This document shows, piece by piece, positions 1 to 17,906 of a stretch of DNA of 64,000 nt. This DNA is from Perkinsus olseni. Taxonomy: Eukaryota; Perkinsozoa; Perkinsida; Perkinsidae. Position 1 is the first letter of the stretch, and each line of letters starts with the position of its first letter. The translations under genes were made by a program, and so were the position numbers. The DNA lies in NCBI GenBank assembly GCA_013115135.1, contig JABANP010000216.1, positions 1 through 64,000 of the forward strand, read 5' to 3'. A model generated the notes under the pieces. That model made no database searches and was not told the DNA's origin. It worked only from the letters and a program-made list of their open reading frames with translations.

Positions 1-2037
1 AAATACTGAGAGGAAACCCAAAGTTTGATTTTGGGACAACGTGATCCTCGCCGTTGAACTGGGTAGTAGTGGAACCGTGTGGCTAGATGTAGATATACGA
101 ATCACGATGACCGAGCTGTGAACCATTCCTCCCAGGTTGCATCCACTCAAACCAACACCTCAACCACCCAAGCATAGGCTATCTTGGCATTGTAGGATAC
201 TGGATGATTCATGTCTCGAGGATAATTTTACAGCACCTTCCCCGATAAAACAATCCAAGGATAAAATAGAAAGCGATGAAATGATCCTACCTGAGCTGAC
301 TCTGTTTTTGTTTGTTAATCTGAGTAGTTAGAAATATACCTCAATTCCCTACTACCCCATCATATTCTCTAATCCCTCAGTAGTCTAGCTTCTGCAGGAC
401 TGAGCGCCACTCTGTAAATACCACCAACAATATCCAGCAAATGAGCAGCGCTTGTACACAACGTTTTATCGGTGATGATTAGTTTGTAACTCGTCTAGCA
501 GGCTTTTCTCCAATCTTGTAAACCATGCTGAATAGATGATAATGAGATGAACTACAGAGATGAAATAAATGCATTCCATTTCCAAATGATATGCGCTTTA
601 TCGTTGTGTCATCAAAAATTCATAATCAGGATGACGACACTCGGTACTCGATTTCAAGCCAGTGGTCAGACATACAAGATCTCCAGAGGTGGAAGCTCCC
701 ACTGCGTCAAAAGCCTATCGGCACGCGGGAGCCAACTCGTCGAATGCTACTTAGGAATCACCGGCACATAATGCGTATTAGTTGTTGAAGTTTGAATAGG
801 TGCGGAGTTAAGCATAATAATTCATCTTCGAATACTAATTTCACTCGGCTGTGACCGAGCAGATCTTCATTGGTGTAGAAGCTCGGTTAGGTAGACACAC
901 CACGTCTCTGTCGTGAATGCGCAGTTATAGCGATTGGTGGTCGTGTTTTCTTTGACCCCATACGATTCCACTAATATATCCATAATGGGCATGCCATGTA
1001 GCCCATGTTGCAGGAAGTCCTTCTCAGGGCACCATACGTATGTACCAGTTCCATTCGTACATCAGAGAACAAATCACTGGTGGACGACTTCCGCTCGACG
1101 GATAGATTATTCACGACAGCAAGCTGGGTACAAGCTGTCGATAAGGCAGTTGTTAGCTTTACCGGTAGCTGTACCAAATACCACGAAACGATTACGTAAC
1201 GTTTCAACATAGCGACACTGGAAGTCGTCTTCAGCATCATCGTTAATGAACGCTAGCGGGTCAGTTTGTGATACTGGAGATCGTTGTTTGTTCTCGTCGC
1301 AAACGTCCTCTTGCAGGCTCCTTTATGCGGAAATGATGCTAGTGATTGCAACATAGACCATTTTGGCGACACTGAATTGCATGATTCTGATGCTGTTCTT
1401 GAATGCGCTTGTTGAGTGCACACCTGCATAGAATGAAAAAGTTGTTTGTCAGTGTAGTTAAATACTTACGATAGAAGCCAATTCTCCGGTAGACTTTGAT
1501 ATCTTCAAGTCTGCATCTACCGTGGTTTTATACGCAATTAGTGGAGGTCTATCAGCTGAACCTGTACTGTCTTTCATAATGTAATGTCGAGGAGGAGTGA
1601 ACATAGTTTTGATTGAGTAGAGATAGAGGCTGCGATAGAGAAGTAATTAAAAGTGAGCTAGAATGTAGATTTTTGAGTGACAAATCTCCTAACAAAAAAA
1701 ATCAATCATATAGCAACATGCAGAATCGATTTGTAGATTCGACTGAAGTCTTAATTACATTCCACGTGCCAGGAACATATTCCTATTATTTTACGAAAAA
1801 ATACTATTATGCGTATCAAGACATTTTTTTGTTGAGTAATTAACTAATGATACACTAGTAATTTGAAAATGCGGACATGAACAAAGTGAGAATAGATTTT
1901 TTTCGGTAATCAAGCAGAATACATACAGCGATAGTAGGCGATTCTCACTAGTACTGGGAATGCTGTTAAACCACATAATCACACCTATACTCATAATCAA
2001 CCAAACATGACAGGAATAATATTAAAAGAATTGAATA
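1..2037. other. AT-rich stretch with no recognisable gene
   Basis: Only short open frames occur here and none resembles a known family. Composition matches the neighbouring Helitron-like coding region. Because that element runs on the minus strand, this stretch lies downstream of its C-terminus. It may hold the element's 3' non-coding end, but I could not identify a terminal hairpin or a CTRR end with confidence. Confidence 0.4.
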
Positions 2038-2679
2038 TCATACATCTGTATCTGATTTCACATAATAATCAATAAACTTTAAATGAGGATATTTCGAGCG
2101 GAATGCGTGTAGTAAGGTTTTCCCTTTAGATAAAACAATCGGTAATGTATCAGAAGGCTCAACCAAAATATGCCACGCGTGCTCAACTTCAGCTCGACAA
2201 GATTTATTATAGGAGTCGTTGCGAGCATGAAAAGGGAATCCTACTATCAACGCAGCGATCCGCCAAGGCATTAAATCGTTGATAGCAGTAAAAGATGCTC
2301 CTTTTAACCCCCTGTTGTGACTATTAAGACGTTGATAGATGTCTGAAGTGGACCCGATGTAAGAACTATTGACTCTCTTCGAACTGCATAAGCAATATAC
2401 ATACCCACCGCACTCCATATTTGGATCGCATACTCGTATTGATGCTGATTCGAAGTTGCCAATTACAATCCGAGTCGGATCACTGCTAGGGCAAGTTTTA
2501 GCAACTGCTTTCAATAGGTGAGCCATAGTCGTCATATCTGAAGACCGCTTCTGTAATAAATAACCAATTGTATCACGAATCTCGTTAGGAGTATTTATCA
2601 GTGTGATATCAGCAAGCCTCTTTACTCGAGATATGACCACCAGTAGTTGCTGCTTTTTCCCATAAAGCGAAACGCTCAT
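2038..2679 (-). CDS. PIF1 helicase C-terminus fused to a GIY-YIG endonuclease domain
   Basis: This is a single uninterrupted frame of 213 residues. Residues 12-26 (VVISRVKRLADI) match helicase motif VI of PIF1-type SF1 enzymes (usually ALSRV). Roughly residues 90-170 form a GIY-YIG domain: VYCL, then SYIGST, then RL..HN.G.KGA, a PW segment, GF, and a conserved E followed by HAWH. GIY-YIG domains cut DNA with a Tyr/Arg/Glu active site. Fusion in the same frame, directly after motif VI, means the nuclease belongs to the transposase polyprotein and is not a neighbouring gene. Upstream coding for motifs I to V continues in other frames. Known Helitron accessory nucleases are AP/exonuclease-type (Helentrons), and I do not know of a described GIY-YIG version. 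A Penelope-like retroelement, which also uses GIY-YIG, is excluded by the upstream Rep and helicase. Confidence 0.8.
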   Translation of the reverse strand: MSVSLYGKKQQLLVVISRVKRLADITLINTPNEIRDTIGYLLQKRSSDMTTMAHLLKAVAKTCPSSDPTRIVIGNFESASIRVCDPNMECGGYVYCLCSSKRVNSSYIGSTSDIYQRLNSHNRGLKGASFTAINDLMPWRIAALIVGFPFHARNDSYNKSCRAEVEHAWHILVEPSDTLPIVLSKGKTLLHAFRSKYPHLKFIDYYVKSDTDV

Positions 2680-2684
2680 CCGAG

Positions 2685-4281
2685 CTCGGTGTAGCTAATC
2701 GAGTTGTGAGTTGAGGAACTGTCAATCCAAGAGCTTTATGTATGGTACAGCTAACATGATTTTTTTCAATGGGTATTGTCTTCGCTTCATTGTTACGGCC
2801 TCAACAATAATGTCATACCCAACGTCACGGCTGATGCGAACAGATAACCAATCGCTTGGTGGGTTTGAAACATCAATATTATTCGCAAATTGGATACCAA
2901 CAGGTGCCACCAATATACCAACAGTTCCAGCCCTATTGCCATCAGGAATTCCAGTACAAATACCCAGTTGCCCTTGACTGTAGTTTACAGTTCCATCTGC
3001 TGATAAGCCATTACGAGTAAACCGTAGTATTAAAACCAACGGCCAGCTTTAACTCATACGGCTCAGAACAATACTTATCTAACTTCTTGCTCATCATTAA
3101 CGTAGCTGGTTTCCATGTACTATGTAGTCCACCTTCATTGAGCTCATCTTCTGCAATGCTCGTGTAAATATGATCCCCATGCAGCTCTCGTCGCCGTAGA
3201 TGATTGTTAAAAAGCAGTTAGAGCTGCTTGCTCACTACATCGCTTACTATAAACCTCAAAGCTGGTAAACCCAAACTCATCGCGCACCAACTCAATAGAC
3301 GATACCAAATTACAGTTAGCAATCAAAGCCTCGCATAAATAATTTTTCCCTTCTTCACTCACCGGATATGTCGGATCTCTCAAAATATTTATACATCGCT
3401 GCAGTGTCGGATCTTGGGCAGCTCTAACCTGTTCTTGCAACTCGTAAACATTAAAGAGAGAATGCATAAACGGAGATACCCACAATGACCGCCCAGTTAT
3501 TTGGCTCAATTGAAAGGGATCTCCAGTGAGCAACAGCAATACACCCCCATAAGGAGTTTTTTACTTTCCTCAACGTACATAAAAATATCACTCAAGGCAG
3601 TAAACAGACATTGATCGATTAGACCGCACTCGTCTATCAATATAACATCAAGGCTGAGTAAAAAACGATAGCTTCAAGCCGTTGCCTCGTAATTTGCGCA
3701 CAGCAGAGTAAGCAATTTCTGACGCTGTTACAAGACGCCCACCTTTGTTGACACCGACTCCGAATAAATTATGGAGATGGAAACCTCCGAGCAGCAATGA
3801 TCGTTCGCTACTCAGAGCACTCGTAGTCACTTCAAGGCCCCTACTGCGAGCGAACATAGCACTTAACATACATAATGTTGTCTTACCAGAGCCCGGGCAT
3901 CCCACCAAAAGAATATATGGCACAAACACACTCGATGTGCTACGAAAGTAATTGATCGTATCAACACACGAGCGTAGAACATAACGCTGTTCGGAGACGG
4001 ATGCAGGTGATTGCCCGACACATGGTGAAATAGAGGGTATCCATGAGAGTGGGGATCCCAGTGTACAACCAAGTAATGCTTCAGCAGATGGCATATTTGG
4101 AATTTCTAGCCGTAGAACTGCGTCTATGAAACGCTTCCTCGACTTGGTAATAAAAATCATCGAGTTCATCTGTATGAGCGGCTTCGATTTGACGTAACGT
4201 TATCAAAGGTGTTTCAACATAAACAATGCCACCACTATTAGTACACATGAAATGTGTGCAAAACATATTTTGCAATCGCAA
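2685..4281 (-). pseudogene. PIF1-type SF1 helicase domain of the Helitron-like element, frame-shifted
   Basis: Helicase motifs occur in order on the minus strand but in different frames. Walker A GCPGSGKTTL lies near 3880-3910, followed by the conserved SERSLLLGG..LHNLFG segment. Walker B LIDECG is near 3622-3645, motif III LLLLTGDPFQL near 3505-3540, and a TIHKALGLTVPQL segment (cf. HKAQGLTLP) near 2712-2752. Motif VI then continues in the next open frame (2038-2679). Frame changes fall at T6 (3557-3562), A6 (3660-3665), T7 (2760-2766) and T5 (2654-2658). The helicase unwinds DNA during rolling-circle transposition. Every key residue I looked for in motifs I, II, III and VI is present, which is unusual for an old pseudogene. 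Confidence 0.78.
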
Positions 4282-4353
4282 GATTTCTCGAGAAGCAACG
4301 GTGTGAACCGGGCATGGTTCGCAACTCGCTTCTAGCCCAAATATCCAATAATT

Positions 4354-5500
4354 CTATGACAGATTCCTCAGGATCATCTGGAGAAAAGAAGCCCACAAAA
4401 TCTCATAAGTTCGCACGAGAGAAGATGTTCCAAACAACTCAGACTCAGTCGTATACCGTCCATAATACAGAGCCAAATGAACCAACCATTTTCCACTAGC
4501 TGCTGGTAACGTTAAAGGTGGAACGATGATAGGAGGAATAGTTTGGACGAAATCTACCAGATTCGGGAATCGACTCGGATCTTCAAATAGTGGTTTGATA
4601 ACTTGATAATAATAATGATCCAATTTGTCATGGTAGAGTCCATGCTCGCCACGCAAAAACGCTGCGAGTATAATCATACAACCTTGGTATTGCTTGTTTC
4701 CTAACACGTACGATTCGGTTAGCACCATCCACCCAATACGCATGAGAGATATCAGGTATATTTACATACTTATTCAGCAAGATATGTGCATTAGATTCCG
4801 TTACTTTTTATGGGATAGAACGTGAACCATGATAGGTAAAAGTATAATATAAGCCACAAATAACAATTCCGGGGCTCGCAAACCAAAAGTGGTAATCTTA
4901 TCAATACTATAATCGTTGTTCTGCACCTCCAATATCAATGCTTGCTGTGTAGTCGAATACTGTCGGAAGGTCGTAAAATTGCAAGCATATTCTAACCGAA
5001 CTGACATTAGAATTACGCACAACTGAACACAGTAATAATTCCAAGATACGAACATTCAATATTCAACAATCTTGATCATTTCAACAACATTGAACAACCG
5101 ATCACACATGGCATTATGAATTGACGTTCAGCTCGACGTACACAATTACCATAACAACACATTATCTGAATCTTCTATGACAGTGATTTCCGAATATATC
5201 CTCTTCACTTAACTAATAAAAAGTAATAAACACAACATATAGTAATCTAAAAGGAAAACTTTATAGATCAGGCAATTGACTGCGTATCTCGACTTGTGTC
5301 AGATGTGAACCAGTTGCATGATTCCGAGCCTCAATCTTACTTCTTTTTAGCCTTAACTACCGGCCGTTCATCCAACGGATCTGTTCTCACATGAACAAAT
5401 CTAGCACTCGTCACCACATAGTTGAATCGCAGTATATAGAAAATAGCCTCTGGCAGCGATAACACTCGTCCCTGTATATCTCTCATATTACCCCTTTTTC
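4354..5500 (-). pseudogene. Rep-to-helicase linker of the Helitron-like element
   Basis: Several minus-strand pieces lie between the Rep Tyr motif and the helicase. Near 5345-5490 is a segment reading EAIFYILRF..VVTSARFVHVRTDP, with LDERPVV after it. The frame at 4801-5055 contains ITTFGLRAPELLF, like the FSLRPPEL motif common in Helitron polyproteins. The frame at 4354-4743 is a 129-residue segment containing HLALYYGRYTTESELFG. These are linker motifs by my recollection of Helitron proteins. Frames are discontinuous. No independent function is proposed. Confidence 0.55.
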
Positions 5501-5550
5501 AATTTTAAGTCTTTGAGTGGAAGATGATAACTTTATATTCTCGATATTCC

Positions 5551-6766
5551 CTACAACCACTTCAGTAGAAGAAGGCCCGGTTGCATGCAGTCGTGTTTTT
5601 TTATGTGCTCTTCAGCGCCAGCAGCATAAGACGCCAGATACCGAGCTGCCATAGTATAATCAACTAATTGTACGTTGCAGCTCGAGGCGAAAGATGCAAA
5701 ATATGAAGGGATTAACTGGACTCCACTGATGTAGTCCATCTGTTGCATACGACCAGCGTCCTGGTTGCCATTCAGGAGATATTGTGTAAACACCATCTGC
5801 GTCCACGGTAGCCCATCCAAGTTTAACGTACATAGATAATTCCTCGTTACTCAGAGACCGATTGATTTTTTATATACTCGGTAACCGGGGATGGCGTATA
5901 AAATGGCACTCGGCAGTAGAGCTCGCCGTCGTCACCTCGTTTTTTTGACACCGACCCTTCGAGCTAGTGCAAGAATGTCGTTGAAACATAAAGAAAGCAG
6001 CGCACATCTTCCCACTCTGCTTCACTTCGAACTAATTGTTTCACGAAGAGATCCTCTTTGAAAGCACAAAACTGCTTCAGAGAGCATACAATTCTTTTTC
6101 TTGGACTTTTCTATTGATTCATGACTCCAAATCAAAATATGACAATGAGGTAGTGACGATTCAGCACTTTGCCATTCGAACCGCATCCAATAACAATCAA
6201 TAGCCCCAAGAATATCATCATCCCCACCGCTGTATAAATATTCCAAAAAAACTACATACCAACTTATACCATACGACCACATATGGAGTACAGCTCGCTT
6301 GGAAAGCACATTCCTCTGGTACATCGCAGTTAGTTTGCAGAAAACACTCCCGCGCTTTAGTAATCGACTGTAAGCATGGCGTACCGTGTTGATTAGCAGT
6401 TATCGTAATAAAATACCGCGGACATGCCTTACCAATAAGAGCTGATAGCTCGCGCACATTTCGCCTAGAATCTGCAGAATCATAAGCAATATATTTCTCT
6501 CTAATATGCATAGGCATTTCCATACTGTCACCGCTGATATGTTCCCAGCCATGTTTAAGTACAACATTTCGAGTAGTAGTATTAAGCATGTGATTCAGGC
6601 AAACATCGAACATAAATAACGCATAATCACTATTAGACGAAGTTGGACATGACCAGTCTCGAAGTCTCATCACACAGTGATCACGAAATGATCGAAAACC
6701 ATATCGACGGTTCGATGCATTTTGCGTAAAGCGAAATAGGCAGGGCTCCTGGAATACACTTCTCAC
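5551..6766 (-). pseudogene. HUH-type Rep (Helitron-like N-terminal) domain, frame-shifted
   Basis: Three overlapping frames (6218-6766, 6022-6324, 5551-5820) carry the Rep nuclease core. Motif 1 is CPRYFITITANQ. The HUH motif is LPHCHILIW, with Cys between the two metal-binding histidines. Motif 3 is DYTMAARYLASYAAGAEEH. In canonical Helitrons motif 3 reads YxxKYxxK; here both tyrosines are kept but the lysines are replaced (Ser and Gly). Rep nicks and joins single-stranded DNA through these tyrosines. The change between the first two frames occurs at an A7 run (6245-6251). The substitutions could be lineage-typical or could reflect decay. Confidence 0.75.
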
Positions 6767-8568
6767 CAGTAGAATATGATAACAATTTCCAGAAAATGGA
6801 AGTGAAGATGAGGCTCTCAGGAAACAGCAACGGTAAACCCACTCCTGACTGTGACAGTGATACTATGTTCTGAAAATATCGCTGAGCAAATCTAGGTAAA
6901 CTTGAAGGATAACCACGACGACGTAGAACACCGCAAACATGATTAATCAAAAAAAACGCCGGAAACCGTAGAACGTTCCAAACCCAGAGGGACATCTGAA
7001 ACATTTGTGTACAGCTTAACATCCGGCTCTGAATCGTGAACATCGTTAAGATCATGGTCTCCATCAAATGAAAATCCACGTGACGAAGCACATGGACTAT
7101 CACTGGAGATCGTCGTCGCAGCAGCAATATCATAGTGCGAACTTGCCTGATCGGCCAAACTACAAGGAGCTCTCGTTTGTAGAGAAGAGAACTGTTTGTC
7201 ACTGTTCAGATAGATCGGATTGGATGAATTCTTCTGCATTAACTCTACATATCGACGTTTACAAACAGACACTCCACACGACAGACGGAACGGGCATGAG
7301 TACAATGCTTTATGAGGAGTAACTGAACAATCACTCTGTGAACAATATACTTGAGCAGGGAAGTCTTCTTTTTATCAGTAAAACTCTATGAACAGAGCAA
7401 TGCAAAATTGTCTGGCCTCTTAAGACCTGCATAATTGACTCAGTGAATTGTTCTTTCGTGAAATACTCATCCTCACTATACAAGCATATTCGCCAATCGT
7501 CGATCTCACAGAACGCTAACGCTTCAAATGCATCACTACATGCTATAGCATGCTGACCGTATTCCGCCAACCACCAGCTTTTTCCTCATGCCACCATGCC
7601 TAATATAAGCTCGAGGTGACCTTAGTGCATTGGACATGCATAGAGCACAAACCAACTCTTTCCCACCAGGACCATCGACCATCGAAGATAAGGACATACA
7701 CAAATTTGATGATCTTGTGGCATCTTTAAAAGCAAAGCACACTCCCAGAAGATACCAAGGCACCGGAAATTAGTGAAACGTCTCCATTGACTTGGACGCA
7801 TATGCTACACATATTCGCGCTCTGTGCGAACAAAACTAGCATGCGCATAACAACATATGGTGTATGTTCTAATACGATAGGCATAGATTGAACAACTTCG
7901 CGCCATAACCGTTTTTCGACGAGTGATTGCAGAGACCGCAGAGAACTTTGAATAACAGTTCTTTTGGAGTCATCAAACGAAGCGAGTCCTTTTACTACCG
8001 CGATAAAATGTTTGGTAGATGCTTGATTCCAAATGCGTGAAGATCCTAACATTCCCATAGCCTTGATTATATCGCGCATAAATTCATTAGATACCATGCA
8101 GCAAATAAGCAGTAGCCAAATGAAAATATTTACTGCGTCAAACAGCCTCGTGTTTGACAGCACCCACATAGGAGGCGACACTGGCCTAGCGCCATGACCA
8201 CCATACGGATGAGCATAAAAGATATGTGGTATATCCTCAGTGAGTTTCAAGCTACGATCACGTTCACGCATCAACACCGCATCCTTCGGATCAACTACAG
8301 TACTTCGCAATAGATCATCGGAAGTATGTATATCGGATAATGCTTCTGTTGCGCGTACAAGATGAAAAAGTATCGAACTCCGCATAACTCCAGCATACGT
8401 CCGTAAATACATGTCATACGCTACATCAGGTCTATTGCGCATAACCCAGGAATCCACAGACGCTGTTAATGGACAAACATAATCCCAACGCCTATCAGAC
8501 GTTAATGTAAAACTGCTTAAACCGCTCGACGATTCCTGTGCGGTATACAATCCCCAAGTACCCGACAA
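6681..8568 (-). pseudogene. Middle region of the Helitron-like polyprotein, unrecognised
   Basis: Minus-strand frames at 7726-8568 (280 residues), 7536-7763, 7331-7570, 6943-7305 and 6681-7202 probably belong to the same polyprotein, because they are collinear and lie between the Cys-rich N-terminus and the Rep core. The 280-residue frame has no domain I recognise. Its C-terminal part is a long helical region, and it contains IPHIFYAHPYGGHGARPV. The 7536-7763 frame has a CALC pair. The 6681-7202 frame contains GLPLLFPESLIFTSIFW and GALPISLY, a pattern I associate with the region before Rep in Helitron-like proteins. Confidence 0.45.
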
Positions 8569-9077
8569 GAATCCCGTTTTAGCATACTTTATAACCCGCG
8601 GTTTAACAGTGGCCAGTGCAGTATTATCAGCTGTCGGGAGAGATATTCCTCTGAGAAGTGGATTATGTGGCGGATATACAACCTAAACAGGCGAGCCCAG
8701 TCAAAGCCTTGGCCTTCAAGGTTCACATGATTAAACGTAAGGCACTACCTGAAGCGACGAGCCCAAACTATGATCACTACAACTGAGTATTGATAAGCCG
8801 TGCATAGCATCCACGATACATCCTCCTACGACAGGCCCGCTGTCAAATATCCCAGTGGACTCCATGCCATATAACCATGACGGACAACATCCCCGAAATT
8901 TCGATTCATTTCCCCCAAACAGCCTAAAACTGCCATAAATATAACTAATAAGATGTGCGAAAGATAGGTACCCAAATCCATCCTTCAAAGGGGCAAATAT
9001 GACACCCAAAGGGACATAAAACCTTTGGAAAAGTATGGCATATACTCGCGTCTACAAATTTGAATAATGGCATATCA

Positions 9078-9620
9078 TTATGAGGGTAATGGATGTTCCA
9101 CATAGTGTCGCGTGAAGTCAGCAACGAACCCCAACTCTATCTGCTCTTGGTTAAGTAATAGTCTCCAATGTAATTTGATGGTACGCGGCACGTAAAAGAC
9201 CATTTGTTCATGTATGCGAACAGGTGTACCATGGTAGATTAGTACCGAATACAACACTGACGGCCATGCATACCGCCATTGCCGCTTTTTCAAAACAAAA
9301 AAAGCGTAGCACTGCACACAGAGTATCCTCATGCCGTCTCCTCTTGTAAACCACTCGAAATACCTCGGCCCATATAACCGACGCTCTGTCTTAACAAACG
9401 ACAACGGATATTCCACCGTAGACGTTCGTTGACATACTGCACAGACTGAAATATCATGGTCATCATCCATTGTCGATACATGTACATTCTCCAATACGTC
9501 TAGAGCTTCCACGTGCTTTGTGAAAAGACAACGGCTACACAGCGATGACGTGATGGTACAGAATCTTCCACATCTTTCACAATGCAGCCTAGGCCGACGT
9601 TTAGCTTTCTTTTTAAACAA
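9078..9620 (-). CDS. Cys-rich N-terminal region of the Helitron-like polyprotein
   Basis: This frame of 180 residues starts with an ATG and a basic run (MFKKKAKRRPRLH). It then shows CxxC-type pairs: CERCGRFC, CSRC, CAVC and CVQC, spaced as two probable zinc-binding knuckles within the first 105 residues. A hydrophobic Trp-rich block (WRYAWPSVLYSVL) follows. N-terminal zinc fingers are common in Helitron replicases, and this is the most upstream open frame of the collinear set. It is therefore taken as the start of the polyprotein. No promoter was identified. Confidence 0.5.
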   Translation of the reverse strand: MFKKKAKRRPRLHCERCGRFCTITSSLCSRCLFTKHVEALDVLENVHVSTMDDDHDISVCAVCQRTSTVEYPLSFVKTERRLYGPRYFEWFTRGDGMRILCVQCYAFFVLKKRQWRYAWPSVLYSVLIYHGTPVRIHEQMVFYVPRTIKLHWRLLLNQEQIELGFVADFTRHYVEHPLPS

Positions 9621-10287
9621 TGATTGTCGTATCTATACAACACACACGTAGAGCCGCCTCTTTGATGAATTTCACATCAACTACTCCTGGCACACTATAT
9701 GATCTTCAAGGAAAAGCGCAACACTCAGACGCACGTTAGTTAAGCCAAGAATCAGAATTACTTGTGACACCCCCATTACTTGTGACATTCTTTATGGCCA
9801 ACTCTCGTAGATACACTACGAATGTCAATCTACGATGGCTGATCGAGTTGACATGACAACAACTGCTGAAAACACAATTGAATACCTACAACCTCACCAG
9901 AGTCATTTTCGCCTAAATTGTCATAATACTTATATTAATAGCGTATCATCTCAATGCGTAGCTTATATCACTCATTCGACATGAAACCATTTAGTATAAT
10001 AACTCCAAAGAAGACTTTCCAAGTAACAGATATTAATTCACGCTTAACAAGACCCTAATACCTTCAGTACAACAAAGACCAAATGTCCGTAACTCTCAAG
10101 AATTGATAAACTACAAATAATAGTCCAGACTCCCTTTGATATAATCAACATTTGACGAAAATCCAACTTCTTTAAGTAGACACAAACCACTTGTGAAACT
10201 TTCGAGTAAGATCATTCATCAAACTTAGTAAATTTGACAAATTATTTGCACCCTGTATACTAAAACTTACTCGCTCAATGCGTCACA
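9621..10287. other. AT-rich non-coding stretch upstream of the Helitron-like ORFs
   Basis: No coding sequence is recognised. It probably includes the 5' end of the transposon (on the minus strand) and its insertion boundary. A shift to GC-rich, retrotransposon-type composition follows within a few hundred bases. Confidence 0.35.
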
Positions 10288-10960
10288 TTGAATCCTTCTG
10301 TTTCGCTGCACGCGTGCACCAACTCACGAAATGTTTCTCCAGTTATTTCTCGAGAACTACTCGACAGATTTTCACCAACATTCGCGTGCTGTCTTAGTTG
10401 GACCATTTGGCACCTTTTTGGAAAGTTTGAGAAAATTCTGATGGTGAACAGAAAAAAAGACCACTTTTCTGGGGCACCTTTAGCCTTATGCGCAGGCTGG
10501 CGACGGATTAGTCTCGCTCGCCCGGAAATATTCCGTGCGGCGAGCCCGCTACCGCGTCTGTTTTGGTTTCTGGTGAAACCCGTCGCCTATCCACCTAGCT
10601 CTTCTCAGCCCCCTCTTGAAGAAGGCAGGTTGGCTGCGGCTCACGAGGGTTCACACTGTGAACTTCACAGTCTGTCGAGGGTAACGCTCCTTCTACGGTT
10701 AGAAGTACGACCACCACCCAACCACCAAGGGCATCTACGTCGTCCATGCTGATCCTAGGTGCCTCTATTCCTCCTTCTAAGGAGCTTCATCCCGGTTGGT
10801 TGGTTGTTTCTGCCGATGGTTCAACTTACCGAGGTTTGGCAGTTCTAGGCGACGAAGTCTCTGGCTCTGACCTCGTACCTTTACGACCTGTCTCCCTTCT
10901 GTCTACCACCGGTGTGCTGTCTACATTGGACCCTGAGACTGTGCACTACGTCTCCAGGTC

Positions 10961-11093
10961 TGTTGACCAATCCTTGGTCACTTGCTCTCTTACTCCATTC
11001 CCCAACGCACTCGAGCATGGAAACATGGTGGAATTACCTCCTCAGTGATCGCTTACCACGCCTTCTACCCTGTTGAGCACCAGTAATGGCACA
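10961..11093 (+). repeat. 133-bp direct repeat, copy 1 (contains the gag start codon)
   Basis: This block is identical by eye to 12796-12928 along all 133 bases. Flanking sequence differs on both sides. The gag ATG at 11086 lies in its last eight bases. Confidence 0.9.
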
Positions 11094-12801
11094 TGGTGGA
11101 GAACCCGGGCCTCTTCTCGAGTTCCTCGGACTTGAATCTGTCGACGCTCTCCAGTACTTGACCACCTCCGACTTGGACGACCAGTTTCGCGCGAAATCTG
11201 CTCCCCCTGCGACCAGAGCGACTATGAGCCAACTCTTCCAGACCCACTGCAAGACCTCTTTCGGCAAAGACGAGGCCACTTCCTCGACATCTCGCTCCTC
11301 CACCACCCCCCTCAGTCATGGGCACCCTACAAGCCTACTTATCACCGACGACTGGAGCGTTTCCGGGTCCGACGCCGACCACCGCACCTCGTCCACAAAA
11401 TTCCTCGACGTTGTCCGCTGTATCACTCTCCCCAACAACGCCCCCTACCGCGGCCGTACTGACGATCGAAGTATCACCGCCTTCCTCAACTGCCTCTATC
11501 AAGAAGTTCTTCAAGCTGACCTGAATGAGCGTCAGGCATGGCTTCTTCTTCTGCGGGCCTTCGACGAACCTGCAAAGACCAACCTCCGGCAGGCAGTCCA
11601 GCGCTCCTGTGTCGCCCGAGGACTCTGGATGAAAGACTTTGCGGCCATGGTGCGCGAGGGTGCCGCCTGGGCCGAGCTCGAGTTCCGCGAATCCAACTCG
11701 CACGACAACTTCGACGACAAATTTGATGACTTCAAACAGCGCTTCGGTGAGTCCGTGCACGCCCTGGCTGACCGTCTGTCTCTCCTTAAGTCCGAGGCCG
11801 ACTCCGTGGGTTATACGGTGACTGACTCCCAGTTGCTGCGTGTCTACCGCCGGTCTCTCTACCCTCGCCTCCGCTCACTAGCTTCCACTACCTACTGTAG
11901 CTGCGATACTGTCGATGACTTGGCACACCGCTTGCATCGGCATCTCCGCCAGAATCCCGACTTCGAGAAGAACTCCAAGCAGGCTCGCTCGGCTACCCGT
12001 ACATTACCTACGGGACCATCTGCTGATCTCTCTTCCTCACCTGCCCCACCACCGGCGGTGACGTCCGACCCTTCGTCTAAACCCTCTTCCCGCGGCCCTC
12101 CTCTCGACCCCACTCTTCGTGAGTTCTGCCTTGCCAACAACGTCTGCATGTATTACGTTGCCAATGGTATCTGCCGCCGTGGTGACTGCCCTTACAAGCA
12201 CGAGAAGCCCACTACGACCGCAGCTTCGACCCCAGCTCCGGCTCTTCCTACCACCGGTCCGAGCGCGAAGGCGTGTGTCTCTGGCCCCGCAGGGCTGGCG
12301 GCCACGTCTGGCACTTCGTCCCATACCCTCCGATGTCCTGACTTTGGCTCTCTTCATCTCGAAGTTGACACTGGTTGCACTCACTCTCTCATCACGCACC
12401 AGGCCGCCCTTCATCTCCAACATGCCAACCCGTCCGCGCACCTCCGTCTGGTAGACCCTGTCTCGTTCACCACTGCAAGTCATCGCGATGGCCTCCATGC
12501 TCACTGCATCCTTACCATCGCTCTCACTCTTCTCGACGAGTCCCACAACCCGTACACCGTCTCTTGGTCTCCCTACGTTACCTACTCTCCTCTTGGTGGC
12601 TCAAGTGATGGCCTTCTCGGCCGCGACATCATCTTCTTTAACGCCGACCGCACCCTTGTTGTCCCTACTACATCCGGCCCTACGCTTGCCGCTGCATTCC
12701 TCTGCGATCCAACTGATCTCCCTTGCCCACACCCCTCTCGGTCCTCTCTAGCTGATGCCCCCCGTCTCTCCGCCAAACCTACTTCACCATCTACATGTTG
12801 A
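11086..12801 (+). CDS. gag: LTR-retrotransposon Gag-protease fragment with a CCCH zinc finger
   Basis: This is an open frame of 571 residues. Residues about 100-310 are an acidic, helical Gag-like capsid region (LNERQAWLLLLRAF; DDFKQRFGESVHALADRL). A CCCH finger begins at C354 (CMYYVANGICRRGDCPYKH), where most LTR elements have CCHC knuckles. A retropepsin-type protease follows, with DTG at 428-430 (LEVDTGCTHSLI) and LLGRD at 510-514. Integrase, reverse transcriptase and RNase H should come next but are absent. The frame runs into the second 133-bp repeat and stops within six bases. Gag packages element RNA and the protease cleaves the polyprotein. GC-rich third positions differ sharply from the AT-rich Helitron region to the left. 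This is a truncated, non-autonomous remnant. Confidence 0.8.
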   Translation: MAHGGEPGPLLEFLGLESVDALQYLTTSDLDDQFRAKSAPPATRATMSQLFQTHCKTSFGKDEATSSTSRSSTTPLSHGHPTSLLITDDWSVSGSDADHRTSSTKFLDVVRCITLPNNAPYRGRTDDRSITAFLNCLYQEVLQADLNERQAWLLLLRAFDEPAKTNLRQAVQRSCVARGLWMKDFAAMVREGAAWAELEFRESNSHDNFDDKFDDFKQRFGESVHALADRLSLLKSEADSVGYTVTDSQLLRVYRRSLYPRLRSLASTTYCSCDTVDDLAHRLHRHLRQNPDFEKNSKQARSATRTLPTGPSADLSSSPAPPPAVTSDPSSKPSSRGPPLDPTLREFCLANNVCMYYVANGICRRGDCPYKHEKPTTTAASTPAPALPTTGPSAKACVSGPAGLAATSGTSSHTLRCPDFGSLHLEVDTGCTHSLITHQAALHLQHANPSAHLRLVDPVSFTTASHRDGLHAHCILTIALTLLDESHNPYTVSWSPYVTYSPLGGSSDGLLGRDIIFFNADRTLVVPTTSGPTLAAAFLCDPTDLPCPHPSRSSLADAPRLSAKPTSPSTC

Positions 12802-15407: not shown

Positions 15408-15775
15408 ACACAATACCTAGATATAGGAGAGGTTAATCTCAATCGATAATCCAATCTCAATTAATCATTCACAGTTGAATGATAGATCACTTAAGCCTAG
15501 CAGTAGACAATATCACAATACATTGCGTGGCGAGCGACAGCCGACACGACAACATCCCCCTCCCCCGCAGCAGGACTCGCAGTCAGCAGCATTAATCAAT
15601 CCTCTTACTCAGAACTCAAGTATCACGCACCTTGCCCACGTACTGAACGTCATGTTTTCACTCATGAATCGGGATTTTATGGTGATTGTACACGGGGACA
15701 GCGACACAGGCATCAGGATCCACATGCAACCCTAACAGCTGTTCTCTGTTATCTGATCACTTCCCACTATCTCGG

Positions 15776-17906
15776 ATGGCTTCTACAACTCTGCACTTCC
15801 TCTTTCTCCAAAATCTGTTTGTGTTCTTCATCGCCGCCGAGGTCTCTCCGGTGTGGGATGAGTATTGCCAGCAGCGTATCGGCCAAAACTCTTACTGTAA
15901 ATCTTATCGTCTCCCGGCACTCCTGCCACGGCAGTGAAGACCTCTGTGGACCTAGTCTTCTGTCTACATCCAGCCCGGGTCATACCACACCTTCACCAAT
16001 TCCTATCACGACTGACCCTGTTGGGATAACCACTACAGCGAGTTCTGCCAGCTTCGATTGGGACGGCTACTGTAGAGAGCAAGTGGATGGCGTATCGTAT
16101 TGTAAGTACTGGTCAGAGCCTCCCGTCTGTCATGGATCCGAGGTCCCATGCAGTGGTCCGGCTGCTCCTACCCCTACCACACCAAACGTAACTCCTGGTA
16201 ATGATCCATACGACTGCTTCAAGACCTTACAATGTGACGCTGACACCGACGGGGCTATTGCTGAGCTAGAGAGTATCTTTGGAACCGCTAACATCCTGAC
16301 TGGGGATAAGATACCCTCAGTGTTCATGCCGCAATACACGGGAGTACAGCCTTTGGCAGCCATCAGACCGCGGAGTGAGGACGATATACTAATCATCATG
16401 GACGTGTGCTTTCGACACCGCGTGGCTGTTGTGGCGAGAAGTCCCGCCGGCAGCTCCTTCGCTGGTCAAAGTACAGTCCAAGACGGCATAGTTATCCTTA
16501 TGAATGAGTTCAATTCTGTTGAGGTCTCGAAAGCCGCAGAAGCTGAAAGCGGTTATGTAGCCGAGATAGGTGCAGGGACGAGGTTGTTGGAGGCCTACAC
16601 GAGGCTGTATGACCACAACCCTCCTCTGAGCATTAATGGTGGGAGCTGTCCTTCCGTGTCGGTATCGGGTCTAGCCCAAGGAGGGGCCTATGGATACTCG
16701 AGCACTATGTGGGGTATGTTGGCTGATCATGTCATGGCTGTCGATATCGTAGTACAAGAACATGGCGGCCCCTTCAACATGGTCCATGCTACTCGGACCA
16801 ACGACCATGCTGATCTGTTGAAGGCCCTCCGTGGCGGTATGGGTGGCAACTATGGTGTCGTTACTAAGTGGTACCTCAGTGCCATCAGGGCAAGTGAGAA
16901 GGTCTACATTTACCGTCATCAGGTTGCGGCCAATAGTAAGTCGAAGGCTGACGTGCTTGCCAAGACCAAGGCTTATCAAAATGTTATGATTAATCAACCG
17001 TCCAGTAATGGCCTTTGGGGTAAAGTGAAGATTCACAGCAACTTCGAGATGCATTATGAAGGGATGTGCCTTTGCGACCCGATCACTTCTGATTGTACTG
17101 ATTGTGATGAGACCATGGACAAGGTGGACTCCGCAGTACAAGCTAATACTTGGATTACTAAACCCTCACAGAAGTTCACCAATGCTGCTTATGGTGCCTG
17201 GTCCTGGGCTGGGTGCACTAAATGGGCCGACCCTGACTGTCCGAGTGATGCCGTCTACCCCGGTACTGGTGTTGACCCTACTTCTGCCATGGACAATTGT
17301 TGGGCTTATGATTGGAGTTTGAATGAAAACTTACCGTGGAAGAGTAATTCTGTTTATGTCCGTGAAAGTGACATGACAGATTCCTTTTGGGATACCATTT
17401 GGGATTTGAGTCATCAGCCGGAGTGTCAGAAAGGCCGCAACATCTGCATCATCACTTTTGAATATTATGGCGGCAAGATGTTGGATGAGCCAACCGACTG
17501 CTCTGGTGCCGGGCCATGTACTTCCTTCATCCATCGTCATCAAGGATGGAATGTTCAAGTCTCCTCTTTGTGGAACAAGGGAGATTCTGCCGGTGAGGAG
17601 ACCTCCACCAATTGGGTTGCTAAAGCTTTTGCTGCAATCGATCAGTTCAGTTCACTTGAGGAAAGCTATCAAAACTACATCAGCAACCAATGGACTGTCG
17701 AACGGTGGAAGGATAAGTTCTTCCCCGGCCAAGACGTCCAACCCGACCATTGGAAGTATCGCTATTTCGGTCCGCTATCGAATGGTGTATATAACCGCCT
17801 GCAGGAGGTGAAGTGCCACTACAACCCGTACAACCTCTTCACTACACCAACCACCGCTGACATTGTAGTCCAACTACCCACTACCTGCACTACTACTTCT
17901 ACATAG
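15776..17906 (+). CDS. Secreted FAD-linked (berberine-bridge-enzyme-like) oxidoreductase, one frameshift near its start
   Basis: An ATG at 15776 opens MASTTLHFLFLQNLFVFF, a signal peptide. It is followed by a Cys motif W(D)xYCxxxxGxxSYCK...CHGS that recurs about 75 residues later (WDGYC..SYCK..CHGSEVPC). Between the first SYCK and its CHGS the frame shifts, near 15900-15920, into the long frame that ends with TAG at 17906. The FAD_binding_4 region spans about 16250-16900 and contains GGSCPSVSVSGLAQGG and RGGMGGNYGVVT. The C-terminal BBE motif NRLQEVKCHYNPYNLF lies near 17790-17840. These enzymes oxidise alcohols, sugars or other substrates with covalently bound flavin. The cysteine of the 6-S-cysteinyl link is present (16647-16649), but the usual histidine is Ser here (RSPAGSSFAG in place of GGHS). 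A thin single-base error could explain the frameshift. Confidence 0.8.

What the first reader, a model, noticed from the sequence alone, without database searches (positions are those of the whole stretch)
2038..9620. Helitron-like transposon whose helicase is fused to a GIY-YIG nuclease
Seen: Rep motifs (YFITITAN, LPHCHILIW, RYLASYAAG), PIF1 helicase motifs I, II, III and VI, and a GIY-YIG core in one collinear minus-strand series. Helicase motif VI (VVISRVKRL) and GIY-YIG share one uninterrupted frame, so the fusion does not depend on any frame correction. Known: described Helitron accessory nucleases are of the AP-endonuclease/exonuclease type, and GIY-YIG is known from Penelope-like retroelements, homing endonucleases and repair enzymes. 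Inference: a distinct rolling-circle transposon lineage in which a site-specific or structure-specific GIY-YIG nickase could guide target choice or second-strand processing.
Basis: partly seen in the sequence, partly recalled or inferred. Interest (0 to 1): 0.9.

Follow-up and report, generated by a model that had tools for sequence, protein, structure and literature searches.

The report
Helitron-like transposon carrying a GIY-YIG nuclease
A jumping gene in the shellfish parasite Perkinsus olseni encodes a rolling-circle nicking enzyme and a helicase joined to a DNA-cutting domain resembling the repair enzyme SLX1; I did not find this combination described, and relatives of it occur in other, unnamed sources.

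Summary
The frame at 2041-2694(-) carries helicase motif VI and a GIY-YIG domain above Pfam's cut-off; its nearest solved relatives are SLX1 nucleases. The genome is Perkinsus olseni: a protein so named lies in it, identical after its first residue. The window's domain has 18 matches there. PIF1 and GIY-YIG share one open frame in C375, C52, C161, C562, C478 and C718; six database proteins of 2245-2874 aa carry both plus Rep motifs. Key GIY residues are invariant in 15 of 15 aligned loci; dN/dS is about 0.1 in the 3 of 6 measurable pairs. GIY-YIG is on 10 of 11 divergent-Rep contigs and 0 of 6 canonical-type Helitron contigs. Three near-identical copies diverge at window 10595, each after CTN (coding sense), not Helitron's A|TC; ten short units share this end. 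This is a new variant of Helitron/Helentron-type elements, with GIY-YIG where Helentrons carry an AP endonuclease. The nuclease's role is inferred: I favour branch or second-strand processing over target choice, because the short units end in CTT, suggesting Rep specificity.

The parts
2041..2694 (-). helicase C-terminus (motif VI at about 2614-2640) plus C-terminal GIY-YIG nuclease; GIY core about 2173-2406
   Evidence: Pfam PF01541 8.8e-8; PDB SLX1 6.8e-6 single sequence, 8.5e-12 profile; Y100, Y112, G114, R122, H126, E171 invariant in 15 of 15 rows
2722..3560 (-). helicase middle part (two frame pieces, 2722-3048 and 3207-3560)
   Evidence: ORFs; no helicase family matched in these pieces alone; covered by the open PIF1-GIY frame of near-identical C375
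3648..4199 (-). PIF1-like helicase, Walker A region
   Evidence: PF05970 E 0.0036, AAA_22 6.5e-4, both below cut-off here; PF05970 2.1e-11, above cut-off, in C375's frame
5551..5850 (-). Rep motif 3 with two tyrosines (RYLASYAAG)
   Evidence: same motif in C375 and relatives
6022..6862 (-). Rep/HUH domain: motif 1 (YFITITAN) and motif 2 (LPHCHILIW)
   Evidence: PF14214 2.8e-4 here, below cut-off; 6.3e-8, above cut-off, in C375
7726..9632 (-). N-terminal coding region with Cys-rich start (frame pieces 7726-8682, 8731-9051, 9078-9632)
   Evidence: ORFs; no Pfam family above cut-off; zinc-finger-like pattern read by eye
10322..10595 (-). coding-5' terminal region shared with ten short non-autonomous-looking units (plus partial pieces in C434); element ends at 10595
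   Evidence: C131 (window), C375 and C458 diverge after 10595
10480..10595 (-). terminal fold, with hairpin GGTTTC-TGGT-GAAACC at 10565-10580, 15 nt from the end
   Evidence: strand folding of 10480-10598 as DNA: z -4.47, 0 of 200 shuffles as stable; the matching end of C214 (L020:120-260) gave z 0.19, 112 of 200, so the strong fold is not shown in that relative
10596..10598 (-). flanking trinucleotide, CTA in coding sense (TAG on +)
   Evidence: CTN at 5 of 5 flanks where the divergence itself shows the end (C131, C375, C458, C768, C473)
750..1447 (-). downstream ORF with OTU-protease-like motifs (ANNCLIDSL ... HYVPL), broken in the window, open (227 aa) in C375; coordinates mapped from L019:805-1485
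   Evidence: not confirmed by Pfam or PDB profile
1..566 (-). part of a second downstream ORF (207 aa in C375, reaching that contig's start); function unknown; coordinates approximate
   Evidence: L019:1-621:-

Best explanation
This is a mobile element of the Helitron/Helentron type in Perkinsus olseni. Its copies encode a polypeptide (one frame of 2429 aa in copy C161) made of an N-terminal region, an HUH/two-tyrosine Rep, a PIF1-like helicase, and a C-terminal GIY-YIG nuclease of the SLX1 kind. Anatomy, conservation and different insertion sites are shown by sequence. The mechanism is inferred: Rep nicks after CTN at the element end, the helicase peels off one strand, and Rep joins it at another CTN site. 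The fused GIY-YIG domain, like SLX1, would nick branched DNA formed when the single strand joins the target or at the replication fork, helping second-strand capture and release from the donor. My odds: anatomy and lineage 0.95; rolling-circle mobility 0.85; the nuclease acts in transposition at all 0.8; branch or second-strand processing as its main job 0.45; target-site choice 0.25.
For: Domain calls (4, 12, 124). By motif pattern, HxH in 16 of the 17 GIY loci held as longer stretches and Rep-type YxxxY in 14 of 17; in P0002-P0007, 5 of 6 and 6 of 6. SLX1 nearest by sequence and by profile. Single-chain relatives P0002-P0007. Key columns invariant in 15 of 15. dN/dS of GIY 0.099, 0.098, 0.085 in 3 of 6 pairs, the rest saturated. 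Mobility: C131, C375 and C458 share the element to 10595, then have three different flanks. Ten short units share that end; two in C40 lie head to tail, the first ending CTT where the next begins, as expected for rolling-circle products. The PDB profile also matches Helraiser (7lcc, 1.2e-20), best stretch in the helicase.
Against: No activity data. The coding-3' end of a full-length copy was not seen (C131 and C375 begin inside the element; scan of 17 loci gave no convincing match), and no empty site was shown. The strong terminal hairpin sits at the coding-5' end, while canonical Helitrons have it at the 3' end, so strand polarity is unsettled; C214's end does not fold better than shuffles. 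In C562/C478 the GIY part is less conserved than the part upstream (55% against 71% identity). One divergent-Rep contig (C936) has no GIY match. The fold of the GIY domain was not obtained (job unfinished). The nuclease could be kept for another reason, such as countering the host.
Confidence: 0.75

Rival explanations
1. The GIY-YIG domain chooses the target: it nicks after CTN, as the AP endonuclease of Helentrons is proposed to set their T-rich target.
For: CTN at 5 of 5 window-family flanks where divergence shows the end, unlike Helitron's A|T; CTN also before similar starts in the diverged C214, C25 and C888, where the end is assigned by similarity only. Helentron precedent in passages of PMC4067079.
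Against: The short units' own coding-3' end is CTT, and in C40 the next unit starts right after it. One Rep specificity for donor end and target explains this without the GIY domain. SLX1, its nearest relative, is recalled to be structure-specific, not sequence-specific.
Confidence: 0.25
2. Fortuitous read-through fusion: the element inserted beside, or captured, a GIY-YIG gene that has no role in its movement.
For: Helitrons are known to capture genes (PMC6431247 passages). The host also has an SLX1-like gene apart from the elements (C219/C181).
Against: In a search by Rep alone, 10 of 11 divergent-Rep contigs also have GIY. Six of the seven database hits to C161's Rep-helicase-GIY region have it, five of them at 26-31% identity; the seventh, P0008, matches 11% of the query. 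Purifying selection in 3 of 3 measurable pairs.
Confidence: 0.04
3. A domesticated host gene rather than a transposon.
For: Few copies per subfamily; purifying selection.
Against: Three near-identical copies with different flanks and ten short derivatives sharing the end.
Confidence: 0.03
4. It is a Helentron in which the AP endonuclease was swapped for GIY-YIG, nested inside the Helentron/Helitron2 clade, rather than a separate lineage.
For: Nuclease in the same C-terminal place; OTU-like motifs in a downstream ORF; Arg before the xE of Rep motif 2 (FWRDEYQ in P0007, WMRFEWQ in C375), like the published Helentron signature.
Against: The second Helentron signature (Ser before PHxH) is absent: L, R or V here. 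OTU not confirmed. No Helentron reference sequences were at hand for a tree.
Confidence: 0.4

Closest known systems
Helentron (AP-endonuclease-encoding Helitron relative)
   Same: Rep + PIF1 helicase + nuclease fused at the C-terminus; accessory OTU-like ORF (motif level only); non-autonomous partners sharing terminal sequence
   Different: nuclease is GIY-YIG (SLX1-like), not AP endonuclease; flank CTN, not T-rich; only one of two Rep signatures met
Proto-Helentron of Phytophthora infestans and Helitron2
   Same: Rep-helicase with a Helentron-like Arg before motif 2; hairpin at an element end
   Different: those have no nuclease and, for the proto-Helentron, 5' TT / 3' CTAG and A|T insertion (PMC4067079 passages)
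Canonical Helitron (e.g. Helraiser)
   Same: HUH two-tyrosine Rep and PIF1 helicase; tandem copies are known for Helitrons (PMC4067079 passage)
   Different: C-terminal nuclease; end GGTGG after CTN instead of A|TC; very long helicase-tree branches to the two GIY-less rows C334 and P0008
SLX1 structure-specific endonuclease
   Same: closest GIY-YIG relative in the PDB, with a shared HN...T...PW...GF pattern
   Different: fused to a Rep-helicase; no zinc-finger family matched after it, with about 44 aa of tail in the window
Penelope-like elements; PGv-1 Mariner with GIY-YIG ORF (PMC3627910)
   Same: a mobile element that encodes GIY-YIG
   Different: reverse transcriptase or DDE transposase; in PGv-1 the nuclease is a separate protein

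Membership tests
Helitron (canonical, Helitron1) | HUH two-tyrosine Rep plus PIF1 helicase in one protein | tested here: met
   C161: one frame with HxH, YxxxY and Walker A and PF05970, though PF14214 is not listed for it; C375 in two frames, both families above cut-off
Helitron (canonical, Helitron1) | 5' TC, insertion after A | tested here: not met
   coding-5' end reads CTN|GGTGG at 5 of 5 window-family copies. If the polarity is reversed, this end is CCACC followed by TAG, AAG or CAG, so a CTAG appears in some copies only
Helitron (canonical, Helitron1) | 3' CTRR with hairpin about 11 nt upstream | tested here: inconclusive
   3' end of a full-length copy not seen; short units end CATCCTT with a 4-bp hairpin by eye; scan of 17 loci for that end: only C375 (17 of 26, shuffle maximum 16) exceeded its shuffles, inside the OTU-like ORF
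Helentron | C-terminal AP endonuclease fused to Rep-helicase | tested here: not met
   GIY-YIG instead; no exo/endonuclease-phosphatase family in the Pfam scans
Helentron | Rep signatures: Arg-containing triplet before ExQ, and Ser between G and P of PHxH | tested here: not met
   first largely present, second absent (L/R/V) in the motif list, against the text
Helentron | OTU protease / RPA ORFs | tested here: inconclusive
   OTU-like Cys and His motifs in 3 loci; no Pfam or PDB profile support; no RPA family matched in the downstream ORFs scanned
Helitron2 | asymmetric terminal inverted repeats and hairpins at both ends | tested here: inconclusive
   strong fold at the window's coding-5' end, none above shuffles at C214's; other end of full-length copies unseen
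GIY-YIG nuclease superfamily (SLX1-like) | GIY..YIG core with catalytic Tyr, Arg, Glu (roles recalled) | tested here: met
   Y100, Y112, R122, H126, E171 invariant in 15 of 15 rows; Pfam above cut-off
GIY-YIG nuclease superfamily (SLX1-like) | SLX1's C-terminal zinc-finger domain and SLX4 partner | tested here: not met
   no such Pfam match and only about 44 aa after the core; partner not tested
Penelope-like element | reverse transcriptase upstream of GIY-YIG | tested here: not met
   no reverse transcriptase family

The most novel reading that the evidence does not exclude
A third, protist-wide branch of Helitron-like transposons, separate from Helitrons and from Helitron2/Helentrons, that acquired an SLX1-type GIY-YIG nuclease once and kept it, moves to CTN sites, and in one subgroup also carries a conserved 3' structured RNA or ssDNA element next to the nuclease gene.
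Probability: 0.45. Interest if true: 0.82.

Novelty: new variant of a known kind. Interest (0 to 1): 0.72.

Why it matters
Helentrons showed that a nuclease can be fused to a Rep-helicase transposase, but that could have been a single accident. A second, unrelated nuclease at the same place, kept across diverged lineages, says that a second cutting activity solves a recurring problem in rolling-circle transposition. How the transferred single strand is processed at the target is still open as far as I know; a nuclease whose relative SLX1 cuts branched DNA makes that question testable. It also adds rolling-circle transposons to the few eukaryotic mobile elements known to use GIY-YIG.

Tried and rejected
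Considered and set aside: Penelope origin of the GIY domain (nearest solved relatives are SLX1, not homing or retroelement enzymes; no PLE reference was at hand, so this is weak). The 277-bp repeat at 10322-10598 (match coordinates) as an LTR: rejected, because three near-identical copies of the whole element end there. Allelic reading of C131 and C375: at first assumed, then dropped because their flanks differ beyond 10595 and C458 and the short units end there too. The 3' structured block as a known RNA: no Rfam match at E 1, and a covariance model finds only the 4 loci it was built from among 23 sources. Viral and prokaryotic relatives: 32 and 59 pattern stretches, none confirmed (two peptide patterns each). 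tRNA in the short units: by eye a box-B-like stretch, but ARAGORN finds none. OTU: motif only.

Dropped rows and limits: A3 leaves out 3 of 18 GIY loci (C448, a near-copy of C718; C706 and C422, split over two frames), and its rows include both the window and near-identical C375. The helicase tree leaves out C448, C523 and loci with short helicase pieces; its two GIY-less rows have very long branches, and the split has support 50/88 and appears in 49% of 200 bootstrap trees. dN/dS could be computed for GIY in 3 of 6 pairs; the rest are saturated. C936, with a divergent Rep match, has no GIY match; C422's match comes only, not from the Pfam search. P0006 failed the strict HxH pattern. In C888 the start pattern matched a second time, inside a 94-bp tandem duplicate and not after CTN; I did not count it as an end. 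C25 and C888 stay alike for some 40 bases beyond the start that I assign them. The pattern itself requires CT, so it is no test of CTN; one search did not require it.
Full report
What was checked. The minus-strand frame at 2041-2694 (218 aa) scores PF01541 GIY-YIG at 8.8e-8, 32.8 bits against a cut-off of 22.6. A single-sequence search of the PDB gives SLX1 nucleases first (6.8e-6). A profile of 15 rows gives SLX1 at 8.5e-12, UPF0213 proteins at 8.1e-8, then proteasome subunits (7e-4 and weaker, over the domain's second half; I take these as chance), endonuclease II at 0.056 and intron-associated endonuclease 1 at 0.85. Rep and helicase pieces lie upstream on the same strand; in the window their Pfam scores are below cut-off.

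Why the window looks broken. Contig C375 matches window 1-10,000 at 98.4%, with 56 mismatches (45 in the first kilobase) and 86 indel events. It keeps open frames of 267, 1135 and 1000 aa. The 1135-aa frame carries PF14214 and the 1000-aa frame PIF1 plus GIY-YIG, all above cut-off. The window's frame breaks therefore look like assembly indels (inference).

Which organism. P0010, named by its source a partial Perkinsus olseni protein, sits on an 11,266-base contig. C929 has that length and holds its sequence after the first residue. The perkinsid/dinoflagellate spliced leader (motif recalled) occurs 85 times, against 0 for the reversed control.

The family in this genome. The window's domain finds 18 places. 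PF01541 finds 20, of which 17 are these loci. PIF1 and GIY-YIG share one open frame in C375, C52 and C161 and, by equal frame lengths and coordinates, in C562, C478 and C718. C161 has Rep motifs, helicase and GIY-YIG in a single 2429-aa frame. PF14214 finds 17 places. Six contigs score 65.9 bits or more, which I call canonical-type (C40, C856, C45, C334, C283, C80); none has a GIY match. Eleven score 40.3 bits or less, which I call divergent; 10 of these have a GIY match on the same contig (nine in both, C422 only) and C936 has none. A host SLX1-like gene exists apart from the elements (C219, C181).

Relatives elsewhere. Database searches gave P0001 (70% to the C375 PIF1-GIY frame, 1 hit among 8000 scored candidates) and seven proteins for C161. 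P0002-P0007 (2245-2874 aa) all bear PF05970 and PF01541. P0003 and P0004, from JGI metagenomes, also bear PF14214 as precomputed; a rescan gave P0003 28.4 bits, just under the cut-off of 28.9. The seventh, P0008, has Rep and PIF1 families but no GIY-YIG, and matches only 11% of the query. By pattern, HxH was found in P0002-P0005 and P0007, not P0006, and YxxxY in all six. A search with the GIY profile gave two P. olseni proteins only. No relative was confirmed in viral or prokaryotic contigs.

Conservation. Y100, S104, Y112, G114, R122, H126, T136, P143, R167 and E171 are invariant in 15 of 15 rows. For GIY, dN/dS is 0.099, 0.098 and 0.085 in C25/C888, C670/C929 and C52/C718; the three other pairs are saturated at silent sites, with pN 0.14-0.32 against pS 0.79-0.89. 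The part upstream gives 0.169 and 0.186 in the two pairs where it can be computed. By amino-acid identity GIY and the upstream part are similar in five of six pairs (within 7 points); in C562/C478 GIY is looser (55% against 71%). So the domain is under clear constraint, about as tight as its neighbour in most pairs. In a helicase tree the 14 GIY rows fall on one side of the two GIY-less rows, with weak support (50/88) and very long outgroup branches.

Ends and mobility. Window, C375 and C458 agree up to window base 10595 and then have three unrelated flanks. So 10595 is an element end on the coding-5' side, and these are three insertions. The last 277 bp recur in ten further full-length matches, plus pieces in C434, as short units of about 870 bp. 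A segment inside them matches 13 places, 11 over its whole length; the next segment 11 places; their other end 10 of 10 over the full query, the source included. In C40 two units lie head to tail: the first ends CTT at 11712 (read) and the next unit's match starts there by coordinates. C214, a diverged member, has a similar start, GGTGGTAAGGCG, and part of a short unit matches it at 80%. C25 and C888 have GGTGGACGG, assigned by similarity only. A scan for CTNGGT(G/A)G found nothing in 13 of 17 loci and one unrelated-looking match in C929.

Flanks. Where divergence shows the end: CTA, CTT, CTA (C131, C375, C458), CTA, CTG (C768, C473), that is CTN in 5 of 5. By coordinates, CTT at C40; by similarity, CTG (C214), CTA (C25) and CTT (C888, inverted at a contig edge). 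The ten short-unit matches all run three bases or more past the end, which fits a shared AG on the + strand (inference). The N differs between near-identical copies, so it cannot be element sequence; CT is then most simply a target preference.

Mechanism. Canonical Helitrons have 5' TC, 3' CTRR and insert between A and T; Helentrons carry an AP endonuclease fused to the C-terminus and sit in T-rich sites (passages of PMC4067079; of PMC4778049). Here the flank and the short units' 3' end share CT, which fits one Rep nicking at donor end and target, as in rolling-circle elements generally (recalled: IS91). I therefore give target choice by the GIY domain 0.25 and SLX1-like branch or second-strand nicking 0.45. 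None of this is tested.

Unsettled polarity. The window's coding-5' end folds strongly as single-stranded DNA (z -4.47) and has a hairpin 15 nt from its tip, which in canonical Helitrons marks the 3' end; C214's end does not fold better than its shuffles (z 0.19). Either both ends carry hairpins, as in Helitron2, or the gene runs against the rolling-circle polarity.

Literature. Sixteen open-licence papers hold both Helitron and GIY-YIG. I read passages in four of them (PMC3627910, PMC6431247, PMC5718144, PMC6585611) and saw no such fusion; the other twelve I saw only in the listing. PMC5718144 (2017) names GIY-YIG in eukaryotic elements as part of Penelope-like elements and in rotifer Terminons; PMC3627910 has it as a separate protein of a Mariner. 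Of the other searches I saw listings, and passages of PMC4067079, PMC5148889 and PMC4778049; no title or abstract start shown announced it. Subscription journals and Repbase were not searched, so novelty in print is likely, not proven.

Noticed in passing
L025:1545-1774(-), L028:8110-8341(+), L026:1097-1326(-), L024:2370-2601(-): A block of about 230 nt at or just past the 3' end of the GIY frame in four of the elements, with hairpins including a UUCG loop; 10 of 54 predicted pairs show a change on both sides with the pair kept (4 sequences); a DNA search found only these 4 places; no Rfam match in the 3 loci scanned.
   Followed up: partly
G000 C40:10845-12580, C768, C25, C11, C191, C925, C523, C434, C473: Short units of about 870 bp sharing the window element's coding-5' end, two of them head to tail in C40; they hold a tRNA-like stretch by eye that ARAGORN does not call.
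   Followed up: partly
L019:1-621(-), L024:446-1243(-), L032:9198-9893(+), L033:3-695(-), L029:317-1039(-): Further downstream ORFs that resemble each other only in part; no Pfam family above cut-off.
   Followed up: partly
window 11077-12801(+): Long open frame with a gag-like look (zinc-knuckle-like and DTG motifs by eye) close to the element's end; no Pfam match at 0.01.
   Followed up: no
window 15507-17906(+): FAD-linked oxidase of the berberine-bridge type (PF01565 8.7e-19, PF08031 2.6e-4), the only frame of 220 aa or more overlapping 13000-64000.
   Followed up: no
L025:31-1310 and L028:8633-9700: Tandem repeats of 24-146 bp units following the 3' structured block in C562 and C706.
   Followed up: no
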